From: Lunularia cruciata
Taxonomy: Eukaryota > Streptophyta > Marchantiopsida > Lunulariales > Lunulariaceae
DNA: 64,000 nt
Direction: 5' to 3'
Assembly: GCA_948567375.1 (NCBI GenBank)
Contig: OX419755.1
Coordinates: forward strand, 24,072,517-24,136,516
Shown here: piece after piece, positions 13,276-27,520 of the stretch
How positions within the stretch are numbered: the first letter of the stretch is position 1
How the letters are laid out: each line of letters starts with the position of its first letter
The notes under the pieces: generated by a model
Told to the model about the DNA's origin: nothing
What the model saw: the letters and a program-made list of their open reading frames with translations, nothing else
Database searches by the model: none
Made by a program: the position numbers and the translations under genes

Positions 13276-13628
13276 TAGAGCAACACAAGCCCTACACCCA
13301 TTGTCTATAACTAGTCCCACTAACAAGACTATCTATTCTTTATGTTTATTTTTTTTTAGTAGCAAAGGGAGTACCATTAGAGGCCATAAATCAAATTTAG
13401 CCAAAGGATCCTCTATGTCTTGATAGATTTCTTTTTTCACATATATTGTGCATGAAACAATGCTTTTCATCAAGATGTTTGTTAGAAAGGTTTATGAGCA
13501 TCTTAGATATTGCTTCTAAGTGGATAATCCCTCTAGTGGTTCTATTAAGTTGTTTTAGCTAGTTGTAGTAATAATAATAAGAGAGATTTCTACATCAATT
13601 AGTACTAGGTGCTAGTCAACTTCTTATA

Positions 13629-14450
13629 ATGGAGAAAGATACCAATTGCACTAGACAATTGCTATTGGAGAGGTCTTCTTGCATTTTTTTAGTCATACCA
13701 TTGTTCTCCCTTCCAATAACAATTAGTCCAGATCAATTTAGAGTTGCTACACCGGGAGGTTGTGAGGGTATATCTCTAGGCATCTCAACAGCCCTAAAGT
13801 TTGCTTGTTCTACACGTGGATGTTGGGAATAATTTTAATACCATCTCATATGCATCCATCTTTAGAGAGCTTAAGGACACTGGTAGATCCTTGGCAAGTT
13901 TTATTCTCTTAATGTCCTTCTACAATTCTTCTTCCTTCTTTTATGAGCATGGTTTCTCATAAGAAGAAGTCAACATTATACAATCAATTTTTGGTACACA
14001 AGAAGAAGATCCCTTATGGGGACTGTTATTTGCCATGGCTTACTCTTGAGCTCTTTTATCTACCACTTTATCCATGTAAGGTTGTGATTTTCCTTCCTTG
14101 GCACACAATATGCACATTATAGGTCCTCTAGATCATATTAGGTAGGACTTTGACCACTTGATTGTCAAGCTTCATCTTGTACACTTAAGTGTCAAGATAT
14201 CAAAGGTGTAAAGCATGGTCTCCTTTAGGTATCCTTCCTCATATCTAGTTTTTGAAGGGGTGCATCATATCTATATATGGCCTATGTATCTTAGAGTGCT
14301 AATCAGACCTGAGGATTTTGTCACATAATTTTTAGATGCTACTCTTGTAGAGGATATTTTCATGAGGATGACCTTCTTATATTAAAATATTCATAAGTGG
14401 CATTTTGGTTTACTTTCCTCTAGTATTGTTGATGGATAAACTTACCTACT
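13629..14450 (+). pseudogene. LINE-1 reverse transcriptase fragment
   Basis: Broken plus-strand frames carry, in order: DQFRVATPGGCEGIS (start of the RT palm region in this family), IFRELKDTG (after a VDVRNAF-like position), GTQEEDPLWGLLFAMAY (RT motif QGDPLG...LFA), FPSLAHNMHIIGPLDHIR (the catalytic (A/L)DD box, decayed to AHN), and a thumb-like region ending EDIFMRMTF. The same motifs occur in copies 2 and 3, some better preserved there. The catalytic Asp pair is lost in all three copies, so none can be active. Confidence 0.75.
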
Positions 14451-15129
14451 TTGTATAATTCTGCCTTCTTTGACCTTTCTATCACGGTCTTTGGTCTTTG
14501 GTGATATCATTGGAAAAAAGACCATTGAGTGTGTAATAGAGGATTTGACATGTACACAAACAACTTTACCAATATTTTATAGAAGGTCAGGTCTACTATC
14601 TATAGATGAGATAACATATATAGTGTTTATGAGTATTTAGGCTCTCATAACACCTCTACTACTCTCTTGTTTTGTGGTTGCTAATAGGCCAATCTTGAAT
14701 ACCAATATGATCAAGGTACAAGAGAGATCACTTTTTCTCTCCAAATGATATTTCAGTAGATAATAGATTGCTTATCTACACAGGTTTGAGATACCCTTCC
14801 ATTCTTTGCTCCCATACCTTTTGACTAGACTAGATATTTGTGGCTTTCCAAGATAGATCAACAATTTCAACAAGTAAAAAATTTGCTGTTAGTTGACTCA
14901 TACATTTCTCATGTTACTAGGGCATATTTTTACCCTTGGATCCTAACTCCACTAATGATTATGGCATTCTAACTTGCACAAACTAATTTCTCTACAATAA
15001 TGAGGTTTTGCCTAGGTTCACTCATCTACTTGTGAGTGTGGTTCTACACAAGATACGATAGGGATCCAGCTGACCCAATGCCCTTCTGGAGTGTAAAGGA
15101 TAGCTACCAATGATGCTATTAAAGATATA

Positions 15130-16060
15130 GTGTTTGCCATGGCAAGAGAGAAAATATCTCCCTTGGAGGAAGTATTAATATGCTTCCAAACAACAAAAGT
15201 AGAGGTTGACTTGTATTTGCTCCAAGACGATCAAGTGATAATAGCAACTATTTTGGTTATAGATCTCACATGCAACATAGTTTTGGAAAAGGTGATTACC
15301 CATCTCCTTTTATAGGTGTAATACTACAAGGAGAAGAGAACTCTCCAAGAGAGATACAAGAGAGAAAACACAAGTTTCAGACTCAATACTCCAATGCTCC
15401 AAAGGAGCACCTTCTCTTTATTATATAGCAAAGAGGATCCCGTCAAAGGAAGCTCTACCCTTGGATCAGATACATGGATTGGTGACCTGTCATTGAGCTC
15501 CATCCTTGGATTAGTTGTTTGGATGTGTGACATGTTAGTCCTTGTTCTATCCAGTTGACCAAAGGGAATCTTTAGGGAATATTCCTATAGGGAGCTCAGA
15601 ATCACATGGGTGAGGTACTATTGGAAAGCTCTCAACAAGAAAAATCATAGGGAGAGAAGGTAGCCCTTTTCCGTTGGAAGGAGAGGGAATCTCTCCATTT
15701 TTTAGGTCTAATTCATCCATTTAGGCCTCCAAAATTGGCTCTTAAGTTTTTCCTATTTTTGGCTTTTGTTATATTAGTAGAAGTACTCTTTTGGCAACAC
15801 CTCTATCAGATCTACCTAACCCATTGTACATAACATCCTTCTAGATGTTACCAAGCCACTGTTCATCTCCAGATAATATGTCTGGCTACTTATATTACAA
15901 TAGGCGGCAAGTAGAGCGATAGCATACAAGGTCTCCAAGTATAAAGGTATGTAGTGAGGTCATCTCTTTGTTCCTAAAACGTTGGAGTTATATGAAAAAA
16001 TGGATATGGTGTTTGAGACATTTGTCAAAGAGTGTACAAGAGCCTATCATTGTAGGCATT
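15130..16060 (+). pseudogene. LINE-1 restriction-like endonuclease region
   Basis: The frame 15130-15315 reads LYLLQDDQVIIATILVIDLTCNIVLEK; after the G insertion the reading resumes with TLELYEKMDMVFETFVKECTRAY. Copy 2 (minus, about 18.6-18.3 kb) gives DDEVTITDVLIIDPTCD and LELYRDMDMVFDIF, and copy 3 gives QIDILTFKDGLPLLYDVVVVNPL and LAMESFGHLHHQFDGLL. The pattern (Asp, beta-strand, (D)VVIVDPT, then FVPLA.E.FG) fits the PD-(D/E)XK nuclease that follows RT in RLE-type LINEs. This assignment is from family knowledge; an HMM search is needed. Confidence 0.6.
15317..15899 (+). repeat. Solo LTR G with perfect TSD (ATAGG)
   Basis: 583 bp beginning TGTAATACTAC and ending TTATATTACA, flanked by ATAGG at 15312-15316 and 15900-15904. 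It interrupts the LINE-1 endonuclease frame; removing it and one ATAGG restores collinearity with LINE-2. No other copy was noticed in the window. The orientation is arbitrary because no internal region remains. An ORF on the minus strand (15324-15533) has no recognisable domain. Confidence 0.85.
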
Positions 16061-16439: not shown

Positions 16440-17900
16440 CATAAGCATATACAACTTGATACTATACCACTAGTCTATGCAACAAATTCAATAAGAATCT
16501 GGCAATGGACTTCTCAATGTTTACAAAAGATATAGGACTAGATGAATGCATTGTTAAGCTATATGATACTATGCTGATATTGGACATTGTTAAGATGATC
16601 AAAGAAATGACAATAGATGGCAATAAATCTTTAATGAGGTTAACGTTGAATTAGTAGAGCTATCAAGACTATAAATGACACATTGGATACATCTGAATGC
16701 AGTGTTACTCTGTGTTCCCGTTCCATCTATAATCCATATAATCTATCAGAAGCTATAATCCATCAGAAGAAAATGTTGTTATAAAAGGATTATTTGTCAT
16801 TAGAAGGCAGAAGAAAGGTCTTAATGTGTCAAGAGAAGAATTTTACCTCTCTATTTCTGCCACGAAGAGAGAAGTGTGAGCTGATGCTTCCTGGATGCCA
16901 TGGTGAGATATGTATTGGCAAAGGAGTACTACAAGTCTCTCTATCACGAGACAACCTCGTCAATATATTTGTTCTGATGAAAATTCTAGGTAAGTCGCTT
17001 GCCGTAGCAAAGGAGATGATACTTTCATGGACAGGACATCCTAAACGAGTACCAAGATTTCTTATGGAATCACAATCAGAGATGTGTGCAGTTGATAGTG
17101 ATGACAAAGAATATACAGATAAGTTGCTAAAGTTTTTCACAACAACAAACAGGTGAAAATGCTGTTTCTAATGGCTTGTAGGTTCATAGAAAACCTTACT
17201 GTCACTTAGACTAGAAGATGACAGTGACTGCTTGAGCTTTAATCGCGTACATACTCCAGCAGACATCATATCCATATACGTAAAGAAGAAACATCGATCA
17301 GCACAAGATGAAAGGCAATATCAACAAAAAAACAAAGCGTACATGATCTTGGCAATAAACAGGTATTGAAGGATACTCGAAGTAACTTCAAAACAGGCAA
17401 GTGGGATGGATACTCACCATGCGACGACAAAAGGACAATATCTCAGGCAATGTCATCAAAGTCACCTCTTGATTCTCTATCTCATAGAATAGGATTGAAG
17501 TTAGCTCTGACAGAACAAGTACCGTAATGAGACAGATACATCCAACTCTGCTTGGCTACATAAGATCTGGTGAGACACCTTAAAGTGTTGATGTAGGTAT
17601 TGTAAAGTGTTTGTCATCAACATGCATCATAAGTTCATAACGCCTCGTGTCAATGATAGTGATGTATTGAGCTACACCAGTCCATTGTAAGGTGGAAAAG
17701 ATGCTATATTCATCAATGGGGATATCTGTTACAAGAACATCAAAAGTCAAGGTTAGGAGTATAAAATCCTCTAGAGGGATGAACATTGCAACTGCATTTG
17801 CTTACGTCTTTTATTCTTCTGATAGAGGGATCCATATTAAAACGACCAGAGGTAGCCAGACCTCTTAGAACATGCCCTAACAGCCTTGCCTCAAAGGTGT
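16440..17900 (+). pseudogene. RNA polymerase second-largest subunit (Rpb2-like), 5' half
   Basis: Plus-strand frames carry Rpb2/beta motifs in the family's order: EGRRKVLMCQEK (16815 on), DNLVNIFVLMKILG, EDDSDC..FNRVHTPADII (17214-17265), KTGKWDG...SLSHRIG (about 17390-17500), RQIHPTLLGYI then ETP..VGIVK (17530-17610), FINGDI (about 17709) and DRGIHIKT (about 17822). These correspond to Rpb2 domains 1 to 4 (protrusion, lobe, fork, external). About six frame changes and several stops show it is dead. No intron is needed between motifs, and spacing is a little tighter than in nuclear Pol II. The 3' half is at 26.4-27.5 kb on the same strand. Confidence 0.82.
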
Positions 17901-17959
17901 AATCATATCTCTATGAGTGATGTGCACAAGAGTAGTACAATGAAGGAAAAGGATACCGC

Positions 17960-20585
17960 ATAGGAAAAGAAGAAGGATGGGAATAACATATCAAGGCATA
18001 CAAGGGTAAAACATACTAAATAAAATAGTGTTCAGCCCAATGGTATCAGGATGAGAAATTTGTCCAATAGCACCTAAGATATCTTAGCTATGTACATTGT
18101 ATAGTCTACATAGTGCATGCAAAGCATCACCTAGTCCTACAACACATGCACAAATTTTTTGATGTATATAGCACCGGAGCAGCAAAAAAGCATTACCTAG
18201 TGTAATTGCTCCCTTACGCATTGCATCAACCTATGCTCTCTATAGAACAATAGACACATGTTGTATGCAATATGCTATGAAGTAGTAAAGTGAGAGTGGT
18301 ACTCCCCACAATCTACTATGATAAGCTCTTATGTATTCTTTGACAAAATATGTCAAACACCATATCCATGTCTCTATATAACTCCAAAACTAGAGGAGCA
18401 AAAAGGTGACTTGCTGCATACCCCTATACTTGGAGACCTTAGTTGTTACAACTTTGCTTGCCACCCATCCAGGGAATGTGCAATCAACTCCTCTAAAATT
18501 GCATCACATGTGGGATCTATAATTAGAACATCAGTTATTGTCACTTCATCATCTTGGGCAAAATACAAATTTGCCTTGAATCATGCCCTTTGTAAAGAAT
18601 ACCAATACTCCCACACGTGAGGTATCCATTCTCTTATGCCATGGAAAACACTATATCCCTAATGACATCATGGGTAGTTATCCTTTGTCCTCCAAAAATG
18701 ACACCAAGCTATATAGACCCTTGTTGCATCTAATGTAGTACCATACTCACACGTGAGTAATGAAGATTTAGATAGGTAGCCCAAACCTAGGTAGAGCCTC
18801 ATTGTTGTAGAGAAAGTAGCTAGTGCAAGTCAAAAATGCCCTAATGTATGGTTGAGCTAGGAGCCAAGAGCTTGCATCCTTGCCAAAGCAAGAGCCAAAG
18901 ACATGCACTAGTAGCATAAGGAATGGATGAGTCAATTAAGAGAGAATGTAATGTATGTTGAACTGATTGATCCTTTAAGAAAGATTTCAGACCTCTGGTC
19001 CAATCAAAAGGCAAGGAAGCAAAGGATTAAAGGTTATCTTATGCATGTAGAGATAAGCTTGACTCATGCTGTGGGAGAACTTGAGCCTCTAGAGTTCTAT
19101 CTCCTGTTTGCCACAATAGTACTTGGAGAGAAAAGGACCCCTCTTCTACCTTGGTCACATACATCTCCAAGACTGGTCTATCACAACCAAATAAAGGAGG
19201 AAAGTAGATGTTCCAAGAGAGCACGACTACCAAAAAACACTAAAGTGATCATCTCCTCTATAAATAGTAGGTCTCACTCTTCTACACAAGATTGATAGAG
19301 ATGTTTGTCTATGTGTTAAATCCCTTGTCACACATTCAAATGTCTTGGTCCAATGATATAACCAAAGACTCCCATTATCTTGCTATCAAAAACTCTCAAA
19401 CATGATATGAAGGTCAAAGAAGGAAGAATGATATAAAGTAGGTATGTAAATTGATGCGCAATACTAAAGGTGATTAAACCAAATACAACCTATTGATACT
19501 TTTAATGGGAGAAGATCATCCACATGAAAAATATCCTCTACAACTGCAACATCTAAGAAGCATATGATAAAATCCTTGGATCCTTTTCATATTTCAAGAA
19601 TATGCATACCATCTATAGATGTGATACATCCCTCTTAAAGCTAGAAGTGAGGACTGATACCTAAAGGGAATCAAGCTCCACACTTTGACACTTTGACTCT
19701 CAACCTTACCATATGAAGCTCAAAAGTCAAGTGGTCAAAAGCTTTCCTAATCCAGTCTACAAGGCCCACCATATGTGTATCGTTTAACAAGAAGGGAAAT
19801 ATACAAACTAGCATAGCCAAATTAGTAGATAAGAGAGCTCTAAAGTGGGCCATGGCAAATAAATGTCCTTTTAAATGATCTCTTTGTTGTCTATAGACAG
19901 CAACTCCAAGACAATGACTCCTTTCAATGAGAGACCATGTTGGTGATAAAGGGAATAAGGAGAAACATAGAAGGACTATGTTAAAGGAATAAGTCTTGTA
20001 AGGGTCCACTACTTCCTTGAGCTCTCTAAAGAAGGATGCACATGAGACATTTTTAAAATCATTCTTAATATGCACTTATAGAACAACCCACTTTGGGTAA
20101 ATATCTAGGAATGTTCTAACCCTAAAGATATAGCCTCACAACCTTTATGTGTAATAACTCTTATTTGCATTGAGGTGTTATCTCTAATACAATTGTCCAA
20201 ATGCACTCTTGCATTCTTCTCCATAGCAAGAAGTTAAATAGCATTTAGCACCTACCTAACTATAGTAGGAATCTCTCTCCTTGCTATAGTGGTAGTCATT
20301 TGGAACAACTTGGTAAACAACTAGAGGGGTTATCTACTTGGAAGTAATCTCTAAGATTCTCATAAATTGTCCCTAACAAGCCTTTGGCAAAGAGGTGCAA
20401 TGTGCTACACAATGTATGTGCAAGAAGCCATCTATCAAGACATGAAGACTCCTCACGTTGATAGTCTAAAACCTCTAATGGTACTCTATCCCTTTCAAAA
20501 GGGTGATAAACATTAAGAAGAGTTAGTGCAACTAGCCATAGATAAATGATGTAAAGCTTGTGCTACTATATGTTAAAACTTGATC
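17960..20585 (-). mobile_element. RLE-type LINE copy 2 (decayed)
   Basis: The reverse complement aligns with LINE-1 from just upstream of the RT to beyond the endonuclease: the ASFFRELKE block, HLFAMAHFRALLSTN, FPFLLNDTHMVG, FDHLTFELHMVRLRVKVSKCGAW (frame 19671-20075), then DIFHVDDLLPL, and QDDEVTITDVLIIDPTCD. Its 3' end abuts the Rpb2 5' half near 17.9-18.0 kb, and its 5' side is cut at 20585/20586 by a D LTR. Whether more of it lies right of that LTR is unclear. The exact 3' boundary could not be fixed because no poly(A) or TSD was seen. Confidence 0.72.
19671..20075 (-). pseudogene. LINE-2 reverse transcriptase fragment
   Basis: The longest open RT frame of the LINE family here (134 codons). 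It includes FKNVSCASFFRELKE, DHLKGHLFAMAHFRALL, FPFLLNDTHMVGLVDWIRKAF and the thumb segment LRVKVSKCGA, where a Cys-x-x-Trp-x-P motif follows in the next frame. The catalytic doublet reads ND instead of DD. This is the best window sequence for a profile search of the family. Confidence 0.75.
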
Positions 20586-21288
20586 TGTCACACCCATTCA
20601 TGCATTTATGCTCTACAGGGATATTAAGTTTGGTATTGCAAATATTGGAGAAATCTTATCTATGTGGAAATTAGCTAAGCTTGTACATTAGTCATGATTA
20701 GCTAGAGATAGTCCTAGCTTAGATAAAGGTGATCCTATTCTAGAGGAAAGAAAAAGAGTGAGCACCACTATTTTGCCTTCTAGTGTATTGACTTGGTATT
20801 ATTCCTAGTTATTTGACTTTGAGGAAAGAGTTGAGAGCTTGGGCCCACAAGCCTTGTTGGTGCAGACTTTTTCTTTAGTCCAAGGATAGCCCATGTGACG
20901 GAATCCTTGACTTAGTTGGTAGGTGAACATAAGACTACCTACCCATAGGATTATTCCCATGTGCTTGGATATTCTTTTAGACATTTAGACTTTATTTGAC
21001 TTTTAGCTAAGTAACTTGAGTCACTCTAGTAATTATTAACTTTGGTGTGTAAATTTTTAACAAGTACATAAGTTAGGGAGGAAGAGCTACTCATTATCCT
21101 TTCATTTGCAACTATCTCTCTCTTATTGAGTTCTCTAGTGAGCAATGTTTTGAGTCTTGGAGGTGCCTTGGAGTTCTAGCCTTTGGAGTAGTGTGATGGA
21201 GTTGAGGTTCCTTTCCTTATTAGTCCATGGTGCACCACTTTAATAGCTATTCGAGGTTCATCCTAAGTGAGATGCAAGCCGGCTCACA
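20586..21288 (+). repeat. Solo LTR of family D
   Basis: 703 bp, TGTCACACCCATT...GGCTCACA, collinear with the D LTRs at 29238 and 40247. No D internal sequence lies on either side, so it is a solo LTR or an old remnant. No convincing TSD is visible (TGATC left, AATCT right). It is the most diverged D LTR together with the one at 25010. Confidence 0.85.
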
Positions 21289-23559
21289 AATCTAATATCC
21301 TATCTTATCATAATCAAGTAGAGTCTATATTACCTACTATATTCTACTACATGATGTAATATCCCACACCAGCACAATCAAGTGTAATCCATAGTAATAT
21401 CAATGTGATATCAAAGTGGTATAATAGAGATGAAAGATTAATGGCAATGCTTTATTTCAACTAAGAGAGTATGGATATCAACCATCATCTCACTCTCATT
21501 GAGATACATCCATTTTCATATTTGAACTATTTGCATCTATGATTCCATGCGCAAACTTCAACCAGTCATCCAAAATAGATTTTCAATCATCTATGAGCAA
21601 GCAAGCAATGCTTCTTGCTCCTCATAACATAATAGTATGATTTTTGATTCAAAGGTGTTAACTTATGCTAAAAAATAAGTATGTATGACCATAGTGTCAA
21701 ATGCAATCAAAGTACAATGGAGTGAACGTGGTCATTGTTGTTGTGTCATATTGGTGCATTTGCATGAGTTAGGGGAATGATTAGAAGGGCAAGTCATGTG
21801 TTGAGACCAATCTAAGAGTGGATTATAAAAGTAGGTGGATTATTAAGATCATCAAAGAAGCTTTGATAGATTGCAAAACGCAAGAATATGTGATTGCTTG
21901 GCTGAATACCTACTATTTTGTTGAATACTTGCTACCAAGACAAGTTGCACTGCTAGTTTCAAATGGCTTTAGGATAGAGACTACAATTCTAGTGGATGGA
22001 AAAGATCCTAATGCATTGGGGCAGCCCAAATGTTTTGACTAAGTTTTTTTATGCATTTACTAATTACAATAACTAACAATGCGTGCTTGCTTCAGATGCC
22101 ACAAATTGCAATGACACTTTCCACCAGAGAAAATGCAAGGAGGAGGTGACTTGGGAGAATATTCAATGAGTCACATACTCTAGGGTTGAAATTTGAGATA
22201 AATTTCTTTAATTAGCTCTATTTTGTCTCTTTTTTGTTTCCTCTTCTAAGATTGGGCTCAAATCTCTATTTCTCAACACTTCACAATACTAGATGATTAC
22301 TATGCTACCAATCAATGCTTGTGAGAGAGAAATAACTACTCAATTTGGCATTGCATCCATGTGCATGAGGTACTTTGACTACTTATAGCATTGATGTTTT
22401 AAGTGGAGGTGAGAGAGATGTGTTGCATTGTGGAAGGTGTAGAAAAAAATTCACTCAAAGAAGGTAAGAGGTGGAGAAGGAAAAAACATTTGAAAGATTT
22501 TTGTAGATTGGGTTCTTATACTAACCAGTTCTTGTTCCAAAGAGTTCTTATACTAATGGGTAGTTCTTGTAATAGAGGGTTCTTGTAGTTGAAATCTCTT
22601 ATACTAGATGGTCCATGTATGTGATGGAGCTTGCAAAATTGCAATTCTCCTTTGGTAGCAAATAGGCTCTCTTCACAATTGCTCTTCACTTTTACACCAT
22701 TGGCTTTGTTTCTTTGATGCCCTCTCATTACAAGTCCTACTAGACTCTTACTCTTGGCTCCACTCTTTGGCTACTCTTTATACACTCCTACTAGGCTTAC
22801 GCATCCACACATGTACACCAAGATCCATAAAGAGGCATATAGATCTTGGTGTATATGTGTGGATGGGGTAAGCCTATGCTTATCTAATGGGCTCCATGCT
22901 TTCCATACTCTTATGTGCTACCTTGGTAGATGATGAAGAGAGAGATGTTTCTACTTGGACCATTCTAGCTCTCTTCCCTCAATGGAATTTGCTTCATCTT
23001 GCTCATGGGAGTGCATCTAGAAATCAAAAAAATTGCTTCTTGGATTCATTGGTTTTAATAAGAACATTGGCTGCTTTATAGGAGTACACCATCCAAGCAC
23101 AAGTAGTAGTTAGATGGATCATAGAATCTCCATAACACTCTACTTTTAGAGCATTATTGGTTATGTTTTCCTTGATGTAAGGATAGTAAGGAAGTATTGA
23201 TGAGCAGTCCATACACTTTCACCCTCTAGACCAACATCCTTCTCCACCAACTCTCTATTAGGTTTATAGGATCTCCATCCATCATCCACATATGGCTACC
23301 ACCTGTTTGACAAGCTACAGCTTGTGGAGTCCTTCTTTGCCCTTGCTTTATTCCACTCTCTTTTTCTTAGCAAGTGGCCCATAAAGACTAGTTTTTGAGC
23401 ATTTATGAGATTATCTCTCCCCCAATCTACCAAACTCAAGATTTCTCTTTTTCTTTGCTTTCTACCAACATCTTGCATTGAGTTTAGTGCCCCCTAGTGC
23501 TACTTTTTTGTATGGTGCATCTTGTCTCCTTGCTCAATCAAAGGAGACATCAAGTGTTT
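21289..23559. other. Unassigned sequence
   Basis: No coding domain could be recognised. The frame at 21818-22042 (YKSRWIIKIIKEALIDCKTQ...) and the short frames at 22.4-23.2 kb lack known motifs. The only structured feature is the long hairpin at 22792-22876. The right part (from about 23 kb) may be the decayed 5' portion of LINE-3. Confidence 0.45.
22792..22876. repeat. Long near-perfect hairpin
   Basis: Left arm 22792-22825 (TAGGCTTACGCATCCACACA...) pairs with right arm 22842-22876 over about 34 bases with one indel and about two mismatches; the loop is 16 bases (CATAAAGAGGCATATA). It could be a foldback element remnant or a hairpin RNA locus. No other copy was noticed in the window and no flanking duplication is evident. 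Confidence 0.7.
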
Positions 23560-25009
23560 GATTTGTATCCATAGGAAATATTTTCTTGTGTTTAGTGTCA
23601 CATACAATTTGTCTTCATCTTTGCCACTCCTTTTCTTCTTTATTGTCTCCTAATCAATATTCAATAGCCATGTCAAGAGGTTATGAGACAATTATTTCAA
23701 GCATTAGATTTCCTTGGACCTTTACTACAATTGGGCAGTCATCCAAGTGGATGTTTCAAAAACCTTCAATACCATTTCTCATCCAACTTTTTTTTGAGCT
23801 CTTTTTTTAGAAAGGAATCAATTTCCTCCTTGATTCCTTTTGTTGCACTTTTTATGGCATTGAGACACCTATGTTGTACAACCACTATACTACCATAGGG
23901 AAGTTCACTCAATTAGCATCTATAAAAGGTACTGCTAGATAGATCCTTTAAGAGGACCATTATTTGCCATCACTCACTACATAGCTTTGTGTGAGGTTGT
24001 AGCTGCTTTTCCCATGTGTCTTTTTCCATCCTATCAAATGATATCCACACCTTGGACCCTTGGAGAATGTGTTTATGTAATATAGGCTTTCACACTTAGT
24101 TTTGAGACCTTAGGTTTATGAGTTAAGACTCATAAATCTAAAGTTTGGATCACAAATATAATCATCACCTCCTTTGACTTCCCATCAAGATTCCAATTCC
24201 CAATAACAGCTTTCAAGGTATTTTGGTCCTCTCCCAAAAGATGAGGATTTTTTGTTCTTATATCTCAAATACTTTGATTCAAGCTACTACCCATGCTAAC
24301 TTACTCTCCCAATTGGGGAATGTATAGGTAGCCTACTCCTTCCTTTTGAGACATTATGTCTTAAGAGCATCCTATTTAGCACATACATATCCTCCCATAA
24401 CAGTTCTCCTATCACATCTACAGTCCTTCAATAATGCCATTCTTCTCTACACTCTTAGGACCTTGTATGCTCCTTTATTTATTAGATGATTGGTGGCACT
24501 TGCAAATAGCTCTTCTCATAAGAAAGGAGAATGTAGTATCATATCACAAGAAGCTATTGCATTGGCAGCTTACTTGGGAGCATGGGCCTTAGTGGCTCTC
24601 CTTTTGGTATATAGGTTCTACACAAGGAGCACCCATCTCTATTTCCACCCATCACTACACTTCACTCAAGCATCCTTGCTTTCTAAAGATATCCTTGATT
24701 GCCTTGTGATTTATTGCCAAGATTGGCATAAACATCACTTCCCCACTTTGTGAACTTTGTATTCCTAGACACTAGGAATTCAAGTAGAGTTCAATAAGTG
24801 TATGCAACCTCATACCCTTTCAAGAAGCCTTGCTAATGTGCTTGTACCAAATATAGCTAGCTCTCTTGTGGTAGGAAAGATACATAGCTTGCCTTCATGC
24901 TTCCCTTTTGATTGAGGACTTTTGGTTCACATAAGAGGAGTTCACAATTGCCCTTTAGCTTTGGCTAGGTCTTCCATATCCAATACTCTTGGGCATACCA
25001 ATGCCATGG

Positions 25010-25570
25010 TGTGATACCCATTTGTGCATGTATACTCTATAGGGATATTAAGTATGGTATTGCAAGTAGTTGAGAAATATTATCTATATGGAGTTTAGTT
25101 AAACTTCTACTTTAGTCATGATTTATAGAGTTAGTCCTACCTAAGCTAAAGGTGACCCTATTTCAAAGAAAGGGAAAATAGTTAGCACCACTATTTTATC
25201 ATCAAGTGTATTGACTTGGTATTATTATTAGTTATTTAACTTCAAGGAAAGAGTTGAGAAATCTTGGGCCCATAAGCCTTGTTGGTGCAGACTTTTCTAT
25301 AGTCCAAGGACAGTCCATGTGAAGGAATTATTGACTTAGTTGGTAGGTGAGGATAAGACCACCTAGTCATGGGATTATACCTATGTGCTTGTATATTCCT
25401 TTAGACTTTTAGACTTTATTTAACTTTAGCCTAGTAACTTGAGTTACTCCAATAATAAGTAACTTTGGTGTGTAACTTTTTCACAAGTACATAATCTAGT
25501 GGTGAGGAAGTGCTCATCATCCTTTCATCTTTCATCTATTCATCCTAAGTGAGAGATAGGCTGGCTCACA
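25010..25570 (+). repeat. Solo LTR of family D inside LINE-3
   Basis: 561 bp, TGTGATACCCATT...TGGCTCACA, a shorter and diverged D LTR. The flanks read CCATGG on the left and CTATGG on the right, possibly a mutated duplication. It separates the LINE-3 post-RT segment from its endonuclease segment, so it is younger than the LINE. Confidence 0.8.
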
Positions 25571-25576
25571 CTATGG

Positions 25577-26030
25577 TTCTACATTTGACATGGAGTGCAT
25601 CTACATCTTACAATGTGCCATAAGAGGAGAGCCTACTAGAGTTGATGATTGCATTAAAGATGCATTAACACAAATCCTATGCTCTTCTTGCTCACAAGTT
25701 CAGATTGAGCAATGGATGGTCCTACCAGATCCACCTCACAAGAAGGTGCAAATAGATATTCTCACTTTCAAGGATGGCCTACCACTGTTGTATGATGTGG
25801 TTGTGGTGAACCCACTCTGACCAAAATCTTTGGCACAAGGTATCATCCAAATAGGAGTCACAACAATCATTGACACCATGGGAAGGAGGACCACTATGCC
25901 CCACATCTTGCCTCTAACATCTTTGTCTCCCTAGCAATGGAGAGTTTTGGCCACCTTCATCATCAGTTTGATGGACTCCTTCAAGAGGTGGCACGTGGCT
26001 CACTTTGAGGAGAGGCACCTTGGCTTTCAT
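25577..26030 (+). pseudogene. LINE-3 zinc-like and restriction-like endonuclease region
   Basis: The open frame 25590-25820 reads MECIYILQCAIRGEPTRVDDCIKDALTQIL, then IEQWMVLPDPPHKKVQIDILTFKDG and LLYDVVVVNPL. In a shifted frame it continues with KEDHYAPHLASNIFVSLAMESFGHLHHQFDGLL. The layout (Cys/His-containing segment, predicted PD-(D/E)XK core with Asp in QIDIL, then a hydrophobic VVVVNPL strand, then FxxLAxExFG) resembles the C-terminus of RLE LINEs. It is the best preserved copy of this domain here. Confidence 0.6.
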
Positions 26031-26435
26031 CTGCCATGCATACCTCTTATATTTGGCAGATGGTCTCAATCACCCTATAGAGATCATAGGCTTTGATTCT
26101 TCATCATTGGGCATCAGTAGTGGGTGCTCCCATTCCATTGACGACCCTCCCTCAAGTTTGTCAAACATTACCCTTGGAGGATGTCTATCCCACTGTTCAG
26201 TTATAGGTTCCTATTTTGCTCATTTTACATATTTCTACAATTTGTTACTATACATAGAACTTTTTTCTCTATGCCTATGCCCTTCTTCCCGTAGTCTTGG
26301 GCTCTTCTTTTTTATTTTAGTTTTTTTTCTTTTTTTTTGAGATTTTTTGTGCGCTTGTATTCAGTTTTTCTTTTCCTTTGGGTTTATTAGTTTATTTATT
26401 TAGTTTATTGGGCATGTTGGCCTTTCACTTTGGAG

Positions 26436-27520
26436 AAATATAACCAGGAGGACTCTTTGCTGTTCAACGAGTTTGCGATGGACAGTGGACTATTATTTCC
26501 AAGTATCAAATGATATTGTCAAGATTGTAGACAGCAAATATGTAGACGAGACTCTCATTTATATCCCAAATGGAGATATCTTGCGCAATGACAACTTTGT
26601 CGTACTAGTAGGACAGCAAGTAAAGATGGAGATAATATTGCCTACAAGCTCATACTATTATAAAAGTTGAAGGGTAGATAAGCTTGTAATAAAGAGATTT
26701 ATATCTGGTAGTGGACAAGGTAACTAGAGATACAACCGATGAAGGAAATAGAATTGTAAGAGTAAGGAAATATGTTGTACAGGTTTCCTATTGTTGGAAG
26801 TAAGTTCACATCAAGACGCTCTCAAAATGGTGTAATAGGAGCTATCTTTCTACAAGAGGACTTGCCATTTACGAGCAATGGAGTATTGCCAGATCTCATA
26901 ATTAATTTGTCTTGCAATACTGAGCAGAATGACTGTAGGTCATCTATTAAAAATCACTGTAGGCAAAGTATATGTTCTGGGCCTGACACTGTCCGAGACT
27001 CTACACTTATCTTGAAGCTGAATTCTAGAGAAAATATTTGTGTAGGCCACAGGCTCTTATGTAAATGCAGCTCCGTTCAGCGAATCTCACTTAGACTTCA
27101 AAAGACATACGACTTCTTTCTTAAACGAGAAAATGTATTGTGGCGCTACGGGAGCAATGATAGAAGAAAGAGTTGCAATTGGTATCTGCTACTATCATGT
27201 TTTCAGACATCAGGCTAAGGACAAGGCTCACTTTATGTAATATAGGTATCACATAGAGTTTGACAAAACAACCGGTCGAAGGGAGATCAAGAAAGGGAGG
27301 ACTAAGATCGTCTTGTAGCACATGGAACTCATCAATAGTTCTTAAGAAACTTCAGAATATCTCTGATTCGAGTCAAATAGGGATATGTCACAACTGCAGC
27401 ACTATATGCTCTAATAATACTTGTATAAATTGTAGGAGTAGAAATACAAGAGAGCATCAAGTACCATATAGCTTTAAGTTGCTAGCTTAGGAGTTGTGCC
27501 ATTTGTAGCTTCACATCTAG
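26436..27520 (+). pseudogene. RNA polymerase second-largest subunit (Rpb2-like), 3' half
   Basis: Motifs in family order: KYNQEDSLLFNEFAMDSGL (from 26436, equivalent to the GYNxEDS motif of the hybrid-binding domain), GSKFTSRRSQNGVIG then QEDLPFTSNGVLPDLIIN (26796-26900), SRMTVGHLL in a shifted frame, CGATGAMIEERVAIG, YYHVFRHQAKDKAH, LTKQPVEGRSRKGGLR (about 27260-27307), a C-terminal zinc site ICHNC...CSNNTCINC (27380-27433) and PYSFKLLA near the end. The FRHQ-x-x-DK form and compact spacing look less like plant Pol II and more like large DNA virus subunits, from memory only. Frameshifts and stops are present; no introns. Confidence 0.87.

What the first reader, a model, noticed from the sequence alone, without database searches (positions are those of the whole stretch)
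16440..27520. Split, intronless Rpb2-like RNA polymerase pseudogene, possibly a giant-virus relic
Two pieces on the same strand and in the right order (16.4-17.9 and 26.4-27.5 kb) carry at least a dozen Rpb2 signature motifs, including KVLMCQEK, RQIHPTLLGYI, YNQEDSLLFN, KFTSRRSQNGVIG, TKQPVEGRSRKGGLR and a C-terminal zinc site. About 8.5 kb of LINEs and solo LTRs separate them. Plant Pol II-V second subunits have many introns; none is needed here. Some motif wording (FRHQ-x-x-DK) recalls large DNA viruses. Giant-virus insertions are documented in mosses and lycophytes. A processed plant pseudogene is the main alternative.
Basis: partly seen in the sequence, partly recalled or inferred. Interest (0 to 1): 0.92.

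Follow-up and report, generated by a model that had tools for sequence, protein, structure and literature searches.

The report
Giant-virus polymerase relic in liverwort
A liverwort chromosome carries what look like the broken remains of a giant virus's RNA polymerase gene, one of several such scars in this genome, which suggests that giant viruses infected early land plants beyond the mosses.

Summary
Window 16.49-27.50 kb is one broken, intronless Rpb2 gene, in order from N- to C-terminus. The nearest proteins are Physcomitrium patens 'RPB2' fragments. All four window pieces used in a tree fall in one clade (100/99) with those, with other copies from this genome and with a metagenome protein; grouping them with host and Pol II sequences is rejected (AU p 1.2e-52).

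The host is a liverwort, not a moss or lycophyte. Its genome has about 15 sites of this Rpb2; some lie beside viral-type Rpb1, a helicase, DUF2738 and a weak capping-enzyme match.

The window copy differs from copies at five other sites mainly at third codon positions, so they diverged while coding; from two others it differs neutrally, like later duplicates. I read this as several endogenisations of related viruses.

Open: no named giant virus was in the tree, and capsid and VLTF3 searches found nothing, without a working control. Such relics are known from a moss; I found no liverwort report in the papers searched.

The parts
16493..16627 (+). N-terminal piece of the Rpb2 relic (residues 8-51 of P. 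patens P0012)
   Evidence: 51% identity over 45 columns by tblastn
16677..17129 (+). Rpb2 relic, residues 70-221 of P0012; holds KVLMCQEK
   Evidence: 45% over 161 aligned columns; the stop-free stretch 16785-17153 alone is 57% over 110 residues
17123..17604 (+). Rpb2 relic, short pieces in changing frames (about residues 220-374 of P0056); holds RQIHPTLLGYI
   Evidence: stretches 17123-17206, 17190-17366, 17312-17524 and 17488-17580
17637..17893 (+). Rpb2 relic up to about residue 463 of P0056; last recognisable base near 17893
   Evidence: tblastn to 17859; blastn to L008 reaches 17893
17894..21443 (.). first insertion into the gene, about 3.55 kb of dispersed repeats (18462-20570 is a diverged inverted copy of 13276-15318; LTR-like repeat at 20579-21290)
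   Evidence: absent from L005 and L008, where the flanking Rpb2 parts lie 281 and 75 bases apart
   Evidence: 67.5% over 40 and 61.5% over 26 residues; 75% DNA identity to L005 over 313 columns
21751..26437 (.). second insertion, about 4.69 kb, holding an LTR-like repeat at 25010-25539
   Evidence: the flanks lie six bases apart in L005 (1134/1141) and in L007 (1958/1951)
26438..27496 (+). C-terminal part of the Rpb2 relic: YNQEDSLLFN, KFTSRRSQNGVIG, FRHQAKDKAH, TKQPVEGRSRKGGLR, in changing frames
   Evidence: PF00562 1.3e-11 and 8.6e-8, PF04560 3.5e-7; tblastn to P0012 and P0011
27386..27433 (+). C-terminal zinc-site cysteines of the relic
   Evidence: read from the sequence in the frame of 27257-27487, which matches PF04560

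Best explanation
The stretch is the dead remnant of the gene for the second-largest RNA polymerase subunit (rpb2) of a giant virus that entered the germ line of a liverwort ancestor. As inferred, a large DNA virus that carried its own transcription kit infected the host and at least part of its genome became integrated. The unused gene then took stops and frameshifts, two blocks of repeats landed in it, and host-side duplication copied it to at least two other places. It now has no coding function. Shown here: an intronless Rpb2 of a clade distinct from host polymerases; broken; interrupted twice; several coding-diverged lineages in one genome; neutral divergence from two sister copies. Inferred: that the source was a giant virus (from the P. 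patens precedent and the neighbouring genes), the route of integration, and silencing.
For: Nearest proteins to L007 are P. patens fragments (the best two 70 and 75% identical; 6 of the 10 hits are P. patens), and metagenome P0005 (45%). All 4 of 4 window pieces fall in a 14-row clade (100/99) apart from host, Pol II, archaeal and IMG/VR rows; a clade of window pieces with host and Pol II rows is 171 log units worse, p 1.2e-52. The genome has 37 matches to P0056 at E<=1e-6; one lies in host gene L002 and the other 36 form about 15 sites by position. Beside other copies lie viral-type Rpb1 (PF04998 8.9e-16; four sites), Helicase_C 4e-7, DUF2738 6e-8 and a weak mRNA-capping match 1.7e-4. Third-position excess of the window copy against copies at 5 of 5 other-lineage sites is 1.98-2.23 (p 2e-7 or lower), and against 2 of 2 sister copies 0.76 and 0.84 (p 0.3). 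P450-type genes duplicated with some copies place these in host chromosomes.
Against: No named giant-virus Rpb2 was in the tree, and the IMG/VR virus rows do not join the clade. Against solved structures P0056 scores higher to archaeal and Pol II chains (167 and 153 bits) than to the poxvirus-type rpo132 (43.5) or the chain called 'RPB2 homolog' (72.8). None of 16 virus-type queries matched the window or 30 kb on either side. PF04451, PF16903 and PF04947 gave 0 matches in the genome, with controls that rang nowhere. The capping match is below its cut-off. The four pieces are short (47-76 residues) and the order inside the clade is not resolved. Against neutral divergence of the L007/L008 pair, one search gave dN/dS 0.58 (0.40-0.88), although the codon-position test gave 0.90-0.95.
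Confidence: 0.86

Rival explanations
1. A processed (reverse-transcribed) pseudogene of a liverwort nuclear polymerase second subunit.
For: It is intronless, while host loci L002, L003 and L006 match in separated pieces as exons would.
Against: Each window piece is closest to P. patens or liverwort relic rows (highest identities 81, 45, 70 and 66%) and leaves the host and Pol II clade (AU p 1.2e-52). P0056 scores lower against plant Pol IV/V subunit 2 (100 and 94 bits) than against archaeal and Pol II chains. Rpb1 of the same type lies next to Rpb2 at other sites, which retroposition would not give.
Confidence: 0.02
2. A single endogenisation: all copies in the genome descend from one inserted virus by duplication after insertion.
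For: Some copies look like later duplicates: L007/L008 with a flanking P450 gene, and window/L046/L048 by neutral divergence, the last two with a shared P450-type flank. L004 against L007/L008 is intermediate (1.53-1.61, p 0.01 and 0.004).
Against: Other pairs between lineages show a third-position excess of 1.72-2.90, which copies that diverged when dead would not.
Confidence: 0.15
3. A virus-derived gene that the host once used (domesticated) and that later died.
For: Coding-type divergence between copies would also arise in a host-used gene family.
Against: The longer copies bear stops or frame changes and no full-length open copy was listed (top candidates only); some copies have other virus-type genes beside them.
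Confidence: 0.06
4. Assembly contamination, or a virus of a microbe living with the liverwort.
For: Giant-virus genomes were found in Sphagnum metagenomes (PMC12142844, passages).
Against: The copies lie in chromosome-scale contigs (64.5-84.9 Mb for the five whose length was shown), are broken by repeats that recur around them and some are duplicated together with P450-type genes.
Confidence: 0.02

Closest known systems
NCLDV (giant virus) insertions in the moss Physcomitrium patens (Maumus et al. 2014; not held, seen only as cited in PMC5294986, PMC12142844 and PMC4983792)
   Same: The closest Rpb2 sequences found are P. patens predicted proteins; several fragmentary copies. That these particular P. 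patens proteins belong to the published insertions is inference.
   Different: The host is a liverwort; the copies form several coding-diverged lineages; the window copy is cut twice by repeats.
Giant endogenous viral elements of algae and protists, e.g. Euglena gracilis (PMC12455990, start of abstract in a search listing)
   Same: Erosion by transposable elements and duplications.
   Different: Here only fragments of a few kb, mostly transcription genes, were seen; no capsid gene was found.
Uncultured virus contigs of IMG/VR that encode Rpb2 (L009-L022; virus family not tested)
   Same: Rpb2, 32-42% identical in the best segments; L019 also matches 1 of 16 relic queries, an Rpb1 piece.
   Different: The eight rows used fall outside the moss-liverwort clade.
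Plant nuclear polymerase second subunits
   Same: Same protein superfamily.
   Different: Host genes match in separated pieces and lie in a different clade; membership rejected.

Membership tests
Rpb2 / RNA polymerase beta superfamily | Matches to Rpb2 domain profiles | tested here: met
   PF00562 1.3e-11 and 8.6e-8; PF04560 3.5e-7, just under its cut-off
Rpb2 / RNA polymerase beta superfamily | N-terminal domains PF04563, PF04561 and PF04565 | tested here: inconclusive
   No profile match in the N-terminal pieces, although they align to P. patens Rpb2 relatives
Host nuclear polymerase pseudogene | Groups with host or Pol II sequences | tested here: not met
   AU p 1.2e-52
Endogenous giant virus element (NCLDV) | Gene groups with relatives from known plant giant-virus insertions and not with host genes | tested here: met
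   Clade 100/99 with P. patens proteins and a metagenome protein; that the P. patens proteins are viral rests on papers and inference
Endogenous giant virus element (NCLDV) | Gene groups with named giant viruses | not tested
   No named giant-virus sequence was available; the IMG/VR rows did not join the clade
Endogenous giant virus element (NCLDV) | Several viral genes together | tested here: met
   Met elsewhere, at C10:42.12-42.14 Mb: Rpb2, Rpb1, helicase, weak capping match. Not met at the window itself
Endogenous giant virus element (NCLDV) | Hallmarks: major capsid, VLTF3 | tested here: inconclusive
   0 matches to PF04451, PF16903 and PF04947; the controls rang nowhere
Endogenous giant virus element (NCLDV) | Hallmarks: D5 primase, DNA polymerase B, packaging ATPase | not tested
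   PF08706 was asked for but did not complete; the others were not sent
Endogenous giant virus element (NCLDV) | Integration in host chromosomes | tested here: met
   Chromosome-scale contigs, repeats inside the gene, P450-type genes duplicated with some copies
Pimascovirales / pithovirus-like lineage | Tree position with named members | not tested
   The link comes only from papers on P. patens (PMC5294986 and PMC12142844, passages)

The most novel reading that the evidence does not exclude
A giant-virus lineage infected the germ lines of both mosses and liverworts, several times over. The rpb2 relics in this liverwort come from at least three different viruses of one bryophyte-associated clade that also left the P. 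patens relics, so land plants had their own long-lasting giant viruses.
Probability: 0.5. Interest if true: 0.8.

Novelty: new member of a known kind. Interest (0 to 1): 0.62.

Why it matters
[quoted passage not shown] These copies point to a liverwort. Because several lineages diverged while coding, one genome preserves a small sample of extinct virus diversity and suggests repeated endogenisation, which makes the history of giant viruses in early land plants testable by comparing liverwort genomes.

Tried and rejected
Processed plant pseudogene: rejected by tree and AU test. Moss or lycophyte host: rejected by plastid rpoB; row names 'moss_' in the script are a misnomer for this liverwort. 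Shared insertion between the window and L004: a related repeat sits in both, but L004 breaks between the parts that match window 21570 and 21574, a different point. Target-site duplication at the second insertion: flanks read, none clear. Structure of the L007 piece: mean pLDDT 29.9, so no fold search was run. Of three scans of IMG/VR two gave no relative and one gave 14 loci. Rfam: nothing in the window. Pfam on 127 of the 148 stop-free window stretches of 75 aa or more (21 left out by hand; list): 21 families, of which two are Rpb2 domains, three are weak odd ones (SCAN, DUF7158, MLD) and the rest fit retrotransposons. Pfam on 136 of 142 stretches listed for the flanks of four other copies: besides the genes reported, host genes, retrotransposons and weak matches (the table shows 25 of 38 families).

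Full report
What is there. Pfam recognises Rpb2 domain 6 in two stretches and domain 7 in a third, of eight tested. Against P. patens proteins the window aligns from residue 8 of P0012 (at 16493) to residue 749 of 761 of P0011 (at 27496), in blocks that change frame repeatedly; 18 partly overlapping blocks that I drew from this hold 6 stops. Seventeen alignments (two queries, some overlapping) score above the best of 30 dinucleotide shuffles. The two pieces reported are therefore one gene, and a third piece at 21444-21750 lies between them.

The gaps. The parts that flank 21751-26437 lie six bases apart in copies L005 and L007, and the parts that flank 17894-21443 lie 281 and 75 bases apart in L005 and L008. 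So two insertions, of about 4.69 and 3.55 kb, cut the gene. Both hold a copy of a repeat (20579-21290, 25010-25539) that recurs at least six more times in the window, and the first holds an inverted, diverged copy of 13276-15318. I call the repeat LTR-like from its repetition only. Of 21 Pfam families in 127 window stretches, 16 fit retrotransposons and two are Rpb2. I did not show that the inserts are LINEs.

The host. The window lies at C1:24072517-24136516 of a 566 Mb genome in 74 contigs. The plastid rpoB on contig C74 is 95% identical to Wiesnerella, Marchantia and Reboulia, 94% to an entry called Fossombronia mylioides, 88% to the next named liverwort and 82-84% to mosses; some other liverworts are as low as 76-78% (best 120 listed). 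So the host is a liverwort, most likely complex thalloid. Lunularia cruciata, with a 580 Mb assembly and bursts of Gypsy elements (PMC9985172, passages), would fit; that is inference from size and repeats, not identification.

What it is. The nearest proteins to the longest open stretch (L007, 335 residues) are P. patens entries; 6 of 10 hits are P. patens (52-75% identical), and the fifth best is an unnamed metagenome protein, P0005, at 45%. A maximum-likelihood tree of 35 rows puts the four window pieces, five liverwort pieces, four P. patens proteins and P0005 in one clade (100/99). Host exons, two fungal Pol II proteins, three eukaryote transcripts that I labelled Pol II or EUK myself, two archaea, two other metagenome proteins and eight IMG/VR rows lie outside. 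Six of 41 rows were dropped before this tree (HOST_L003a, HOST_L003b, VR_L011, VR_L021a and two liverwort pieces). The tree of all 41 rows has the relic rows on one side of a 100% branch, with P0005 next to them at 89%, and L003 outside. Holding the window pieces with host and Pol II rows costs 171 log units (p 1.2e-52); holding the whole relic clade with them, apart from P0005, costs 79 (p 5.7e-15). The model was LG+G4 without mixture; HOST_L002a has a long branch, and L004c and WIN_27257 have unusual composition.

What does not fit smoothly. No named giant virus was in the tree. Against solved structures P0056 scores best to archaeal (167 bits) and Pol II (153) chains, lower to plant Pol IV/V subunit 2 (100, 94), to a chain called 'RPB2 homolog' (72.8) and to poxvirus-type rpo132 (43.5). 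So 'giant virus' rests on the P. patens precedent and on neighbouring genes, not on a direct tree link.

A family of relics. A search of the genome with P0056 gave 37 matches at E<=1e-6 (54 candidates scored; lower bound). One lies in host gene L002 at C7:9.68 Mb; the other 36 form about 15 sites by position on C1, C2, C6, C7, C8, C10 and C12. Not all were checked by tree; eight of the 15 were compared as DNA. A viral-type Rpb1 piece has 10 matches: six at four sites (C10:10.42, 11.60 and 42.13 Mb, C7:13.86 Mb), and four weaker ones that I take as host genes. Around C10:42.12-42.14 Mb Rpb2, Rpb1 (1.6e-8), a helicase (Helicase_C 4e-7; ResIII 0.0011, below cut-off) and a weak capping-enzyme match (1.7e-4, below cut-off) lie within about 15 kb. 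DUF2738 (32.5 bits, cut-off 23) lies near the C10:10.42 Mb copy; that it is mostly a giant-virus family is recalled, not tested. Neighbouring stretches also gave weak matches of no clear meaning (for example Tuberin 1.5e-4 and Folliculin_C 0.0037, below cut-off).

How the copies are related. For each pair I counted DNA mismatches by codon position, with frames taken from alignments to P. patens proteins (pairs with fewer than 150 sites are not reported). The window differs from L004, L044/L005 (one site), L007, L008 and L047 about twice as often at third positions (1.98-2.23, p from 2e-7 to 2e-17). For four of these dN/dS is 0.20-0.29 with dS 1.11-1.33. It differs from L046 (C7:14.7 Mb) and L048 (C8:4.04 Mb) without such excess (0.76 and 0.84, p 0.3), and these two also differ neutrally from each other (0.76). 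L007 and L008 differ neutrally by this test (0.90-0.95), although dN/dS on selected pieces was 0.58 (0.40-0.88); they share a flanking P450 gene at 93% protein identity. C7 and C8 share a flank at 85-87% DNA identity, which I call P450-type from 23-29% similarity to the other P450, not from Pfam. Other pairs between lineages range from 1.72 to 2.90; L004 against L007 and L008 is intermediate (1.61 and 1.53). So the lineages diverged as working genes, most simply in different viruses before insertion; I count at least three lineages (window group, L044/L005, L007/L008), perhaps more. The p values treat sites as independent, and only stretches still recognisable as coding were counted; the neutral pairs passed the same filter.

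Known and unknown. Giant-virus relics in P. patens are established (PMC5294986, PMC12142844, PMC12344493, passages). One paper says it was unclear whether they occur beyond some mosses and disputes the lycophyte case (PMC4983792, passages); another speaks of endogenisations in 'early land plant lineages' without naming a liverwort in the passages seen (PMC11244446). My ten paper searches listed no title or abstract start that reports them in a liverwort; several lists were capped (15 of 49, 10 of 249). The words 'virus' and 'viral' have 0 occurrences in the main text of the Lunularia and Blasia genome papers. The Maumus 2014 paper was not held. Capsid and VLTF3 profiles found nothing in the genome, but their controls rang nowhere. 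None of 16 virus-type queries matched the window or 30 kb on either side.

Verdict. A dead rpb2, most likely of a giant virus, in a liverwort chromosome, one of many. It is known in kind for a moss but apparently new in host, and informative because several virus lineages seem to be preserved.

Noticed in passing
G000:C10:35425549, 35517559 and 35609414: Three matches of equal score in 1046-aa open frames, about 92 kb apart, to a largest-subunit (Rpb1) query; perhaps a triplicated host gene or an assembly repeat.
   Followed up: no
L005 (C8:62.51 Mb), 2332-2529: At least the start of a second Rpb2 lies just downstream of the Rpb2 C-terminal part.
   Followed up: partly
C7:14.72 Mb, C8:4.04 Mb, C10:10.42 and 11.59 Mb: P450 or P450-type genes lie within about 10 kb of these relics and were duplicated with them.
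   Followed up: partly
L032:2289-2900 and L032:5451-6134 (C8:62.51 Mb): Two unknown open stretches, 45% identical to each other, beside the rpb2 relic; no Pfam match.
   Followed up: partly
L035:7286-7831, L034:2307-2853, L030:2960-3508: An unknown protein conserved at three sites next to viral-type Rpb1, 60-89% identical in its parts; only a below-cut-off Pfam match.
   Followed up: partly
P0013-P0019 and P0022 (metagenomes): A family of short (732-759 aa) Rpb2-like proteins; the two used in the tree fall apart from the relic clade and all other groups.
   Followed up: no
G000:C7:13.84-13.86 Mb: A further site with Rpb2 (E 1.2e-4) and Rpb1 matches about 14 kb apart.
   Followed up: no
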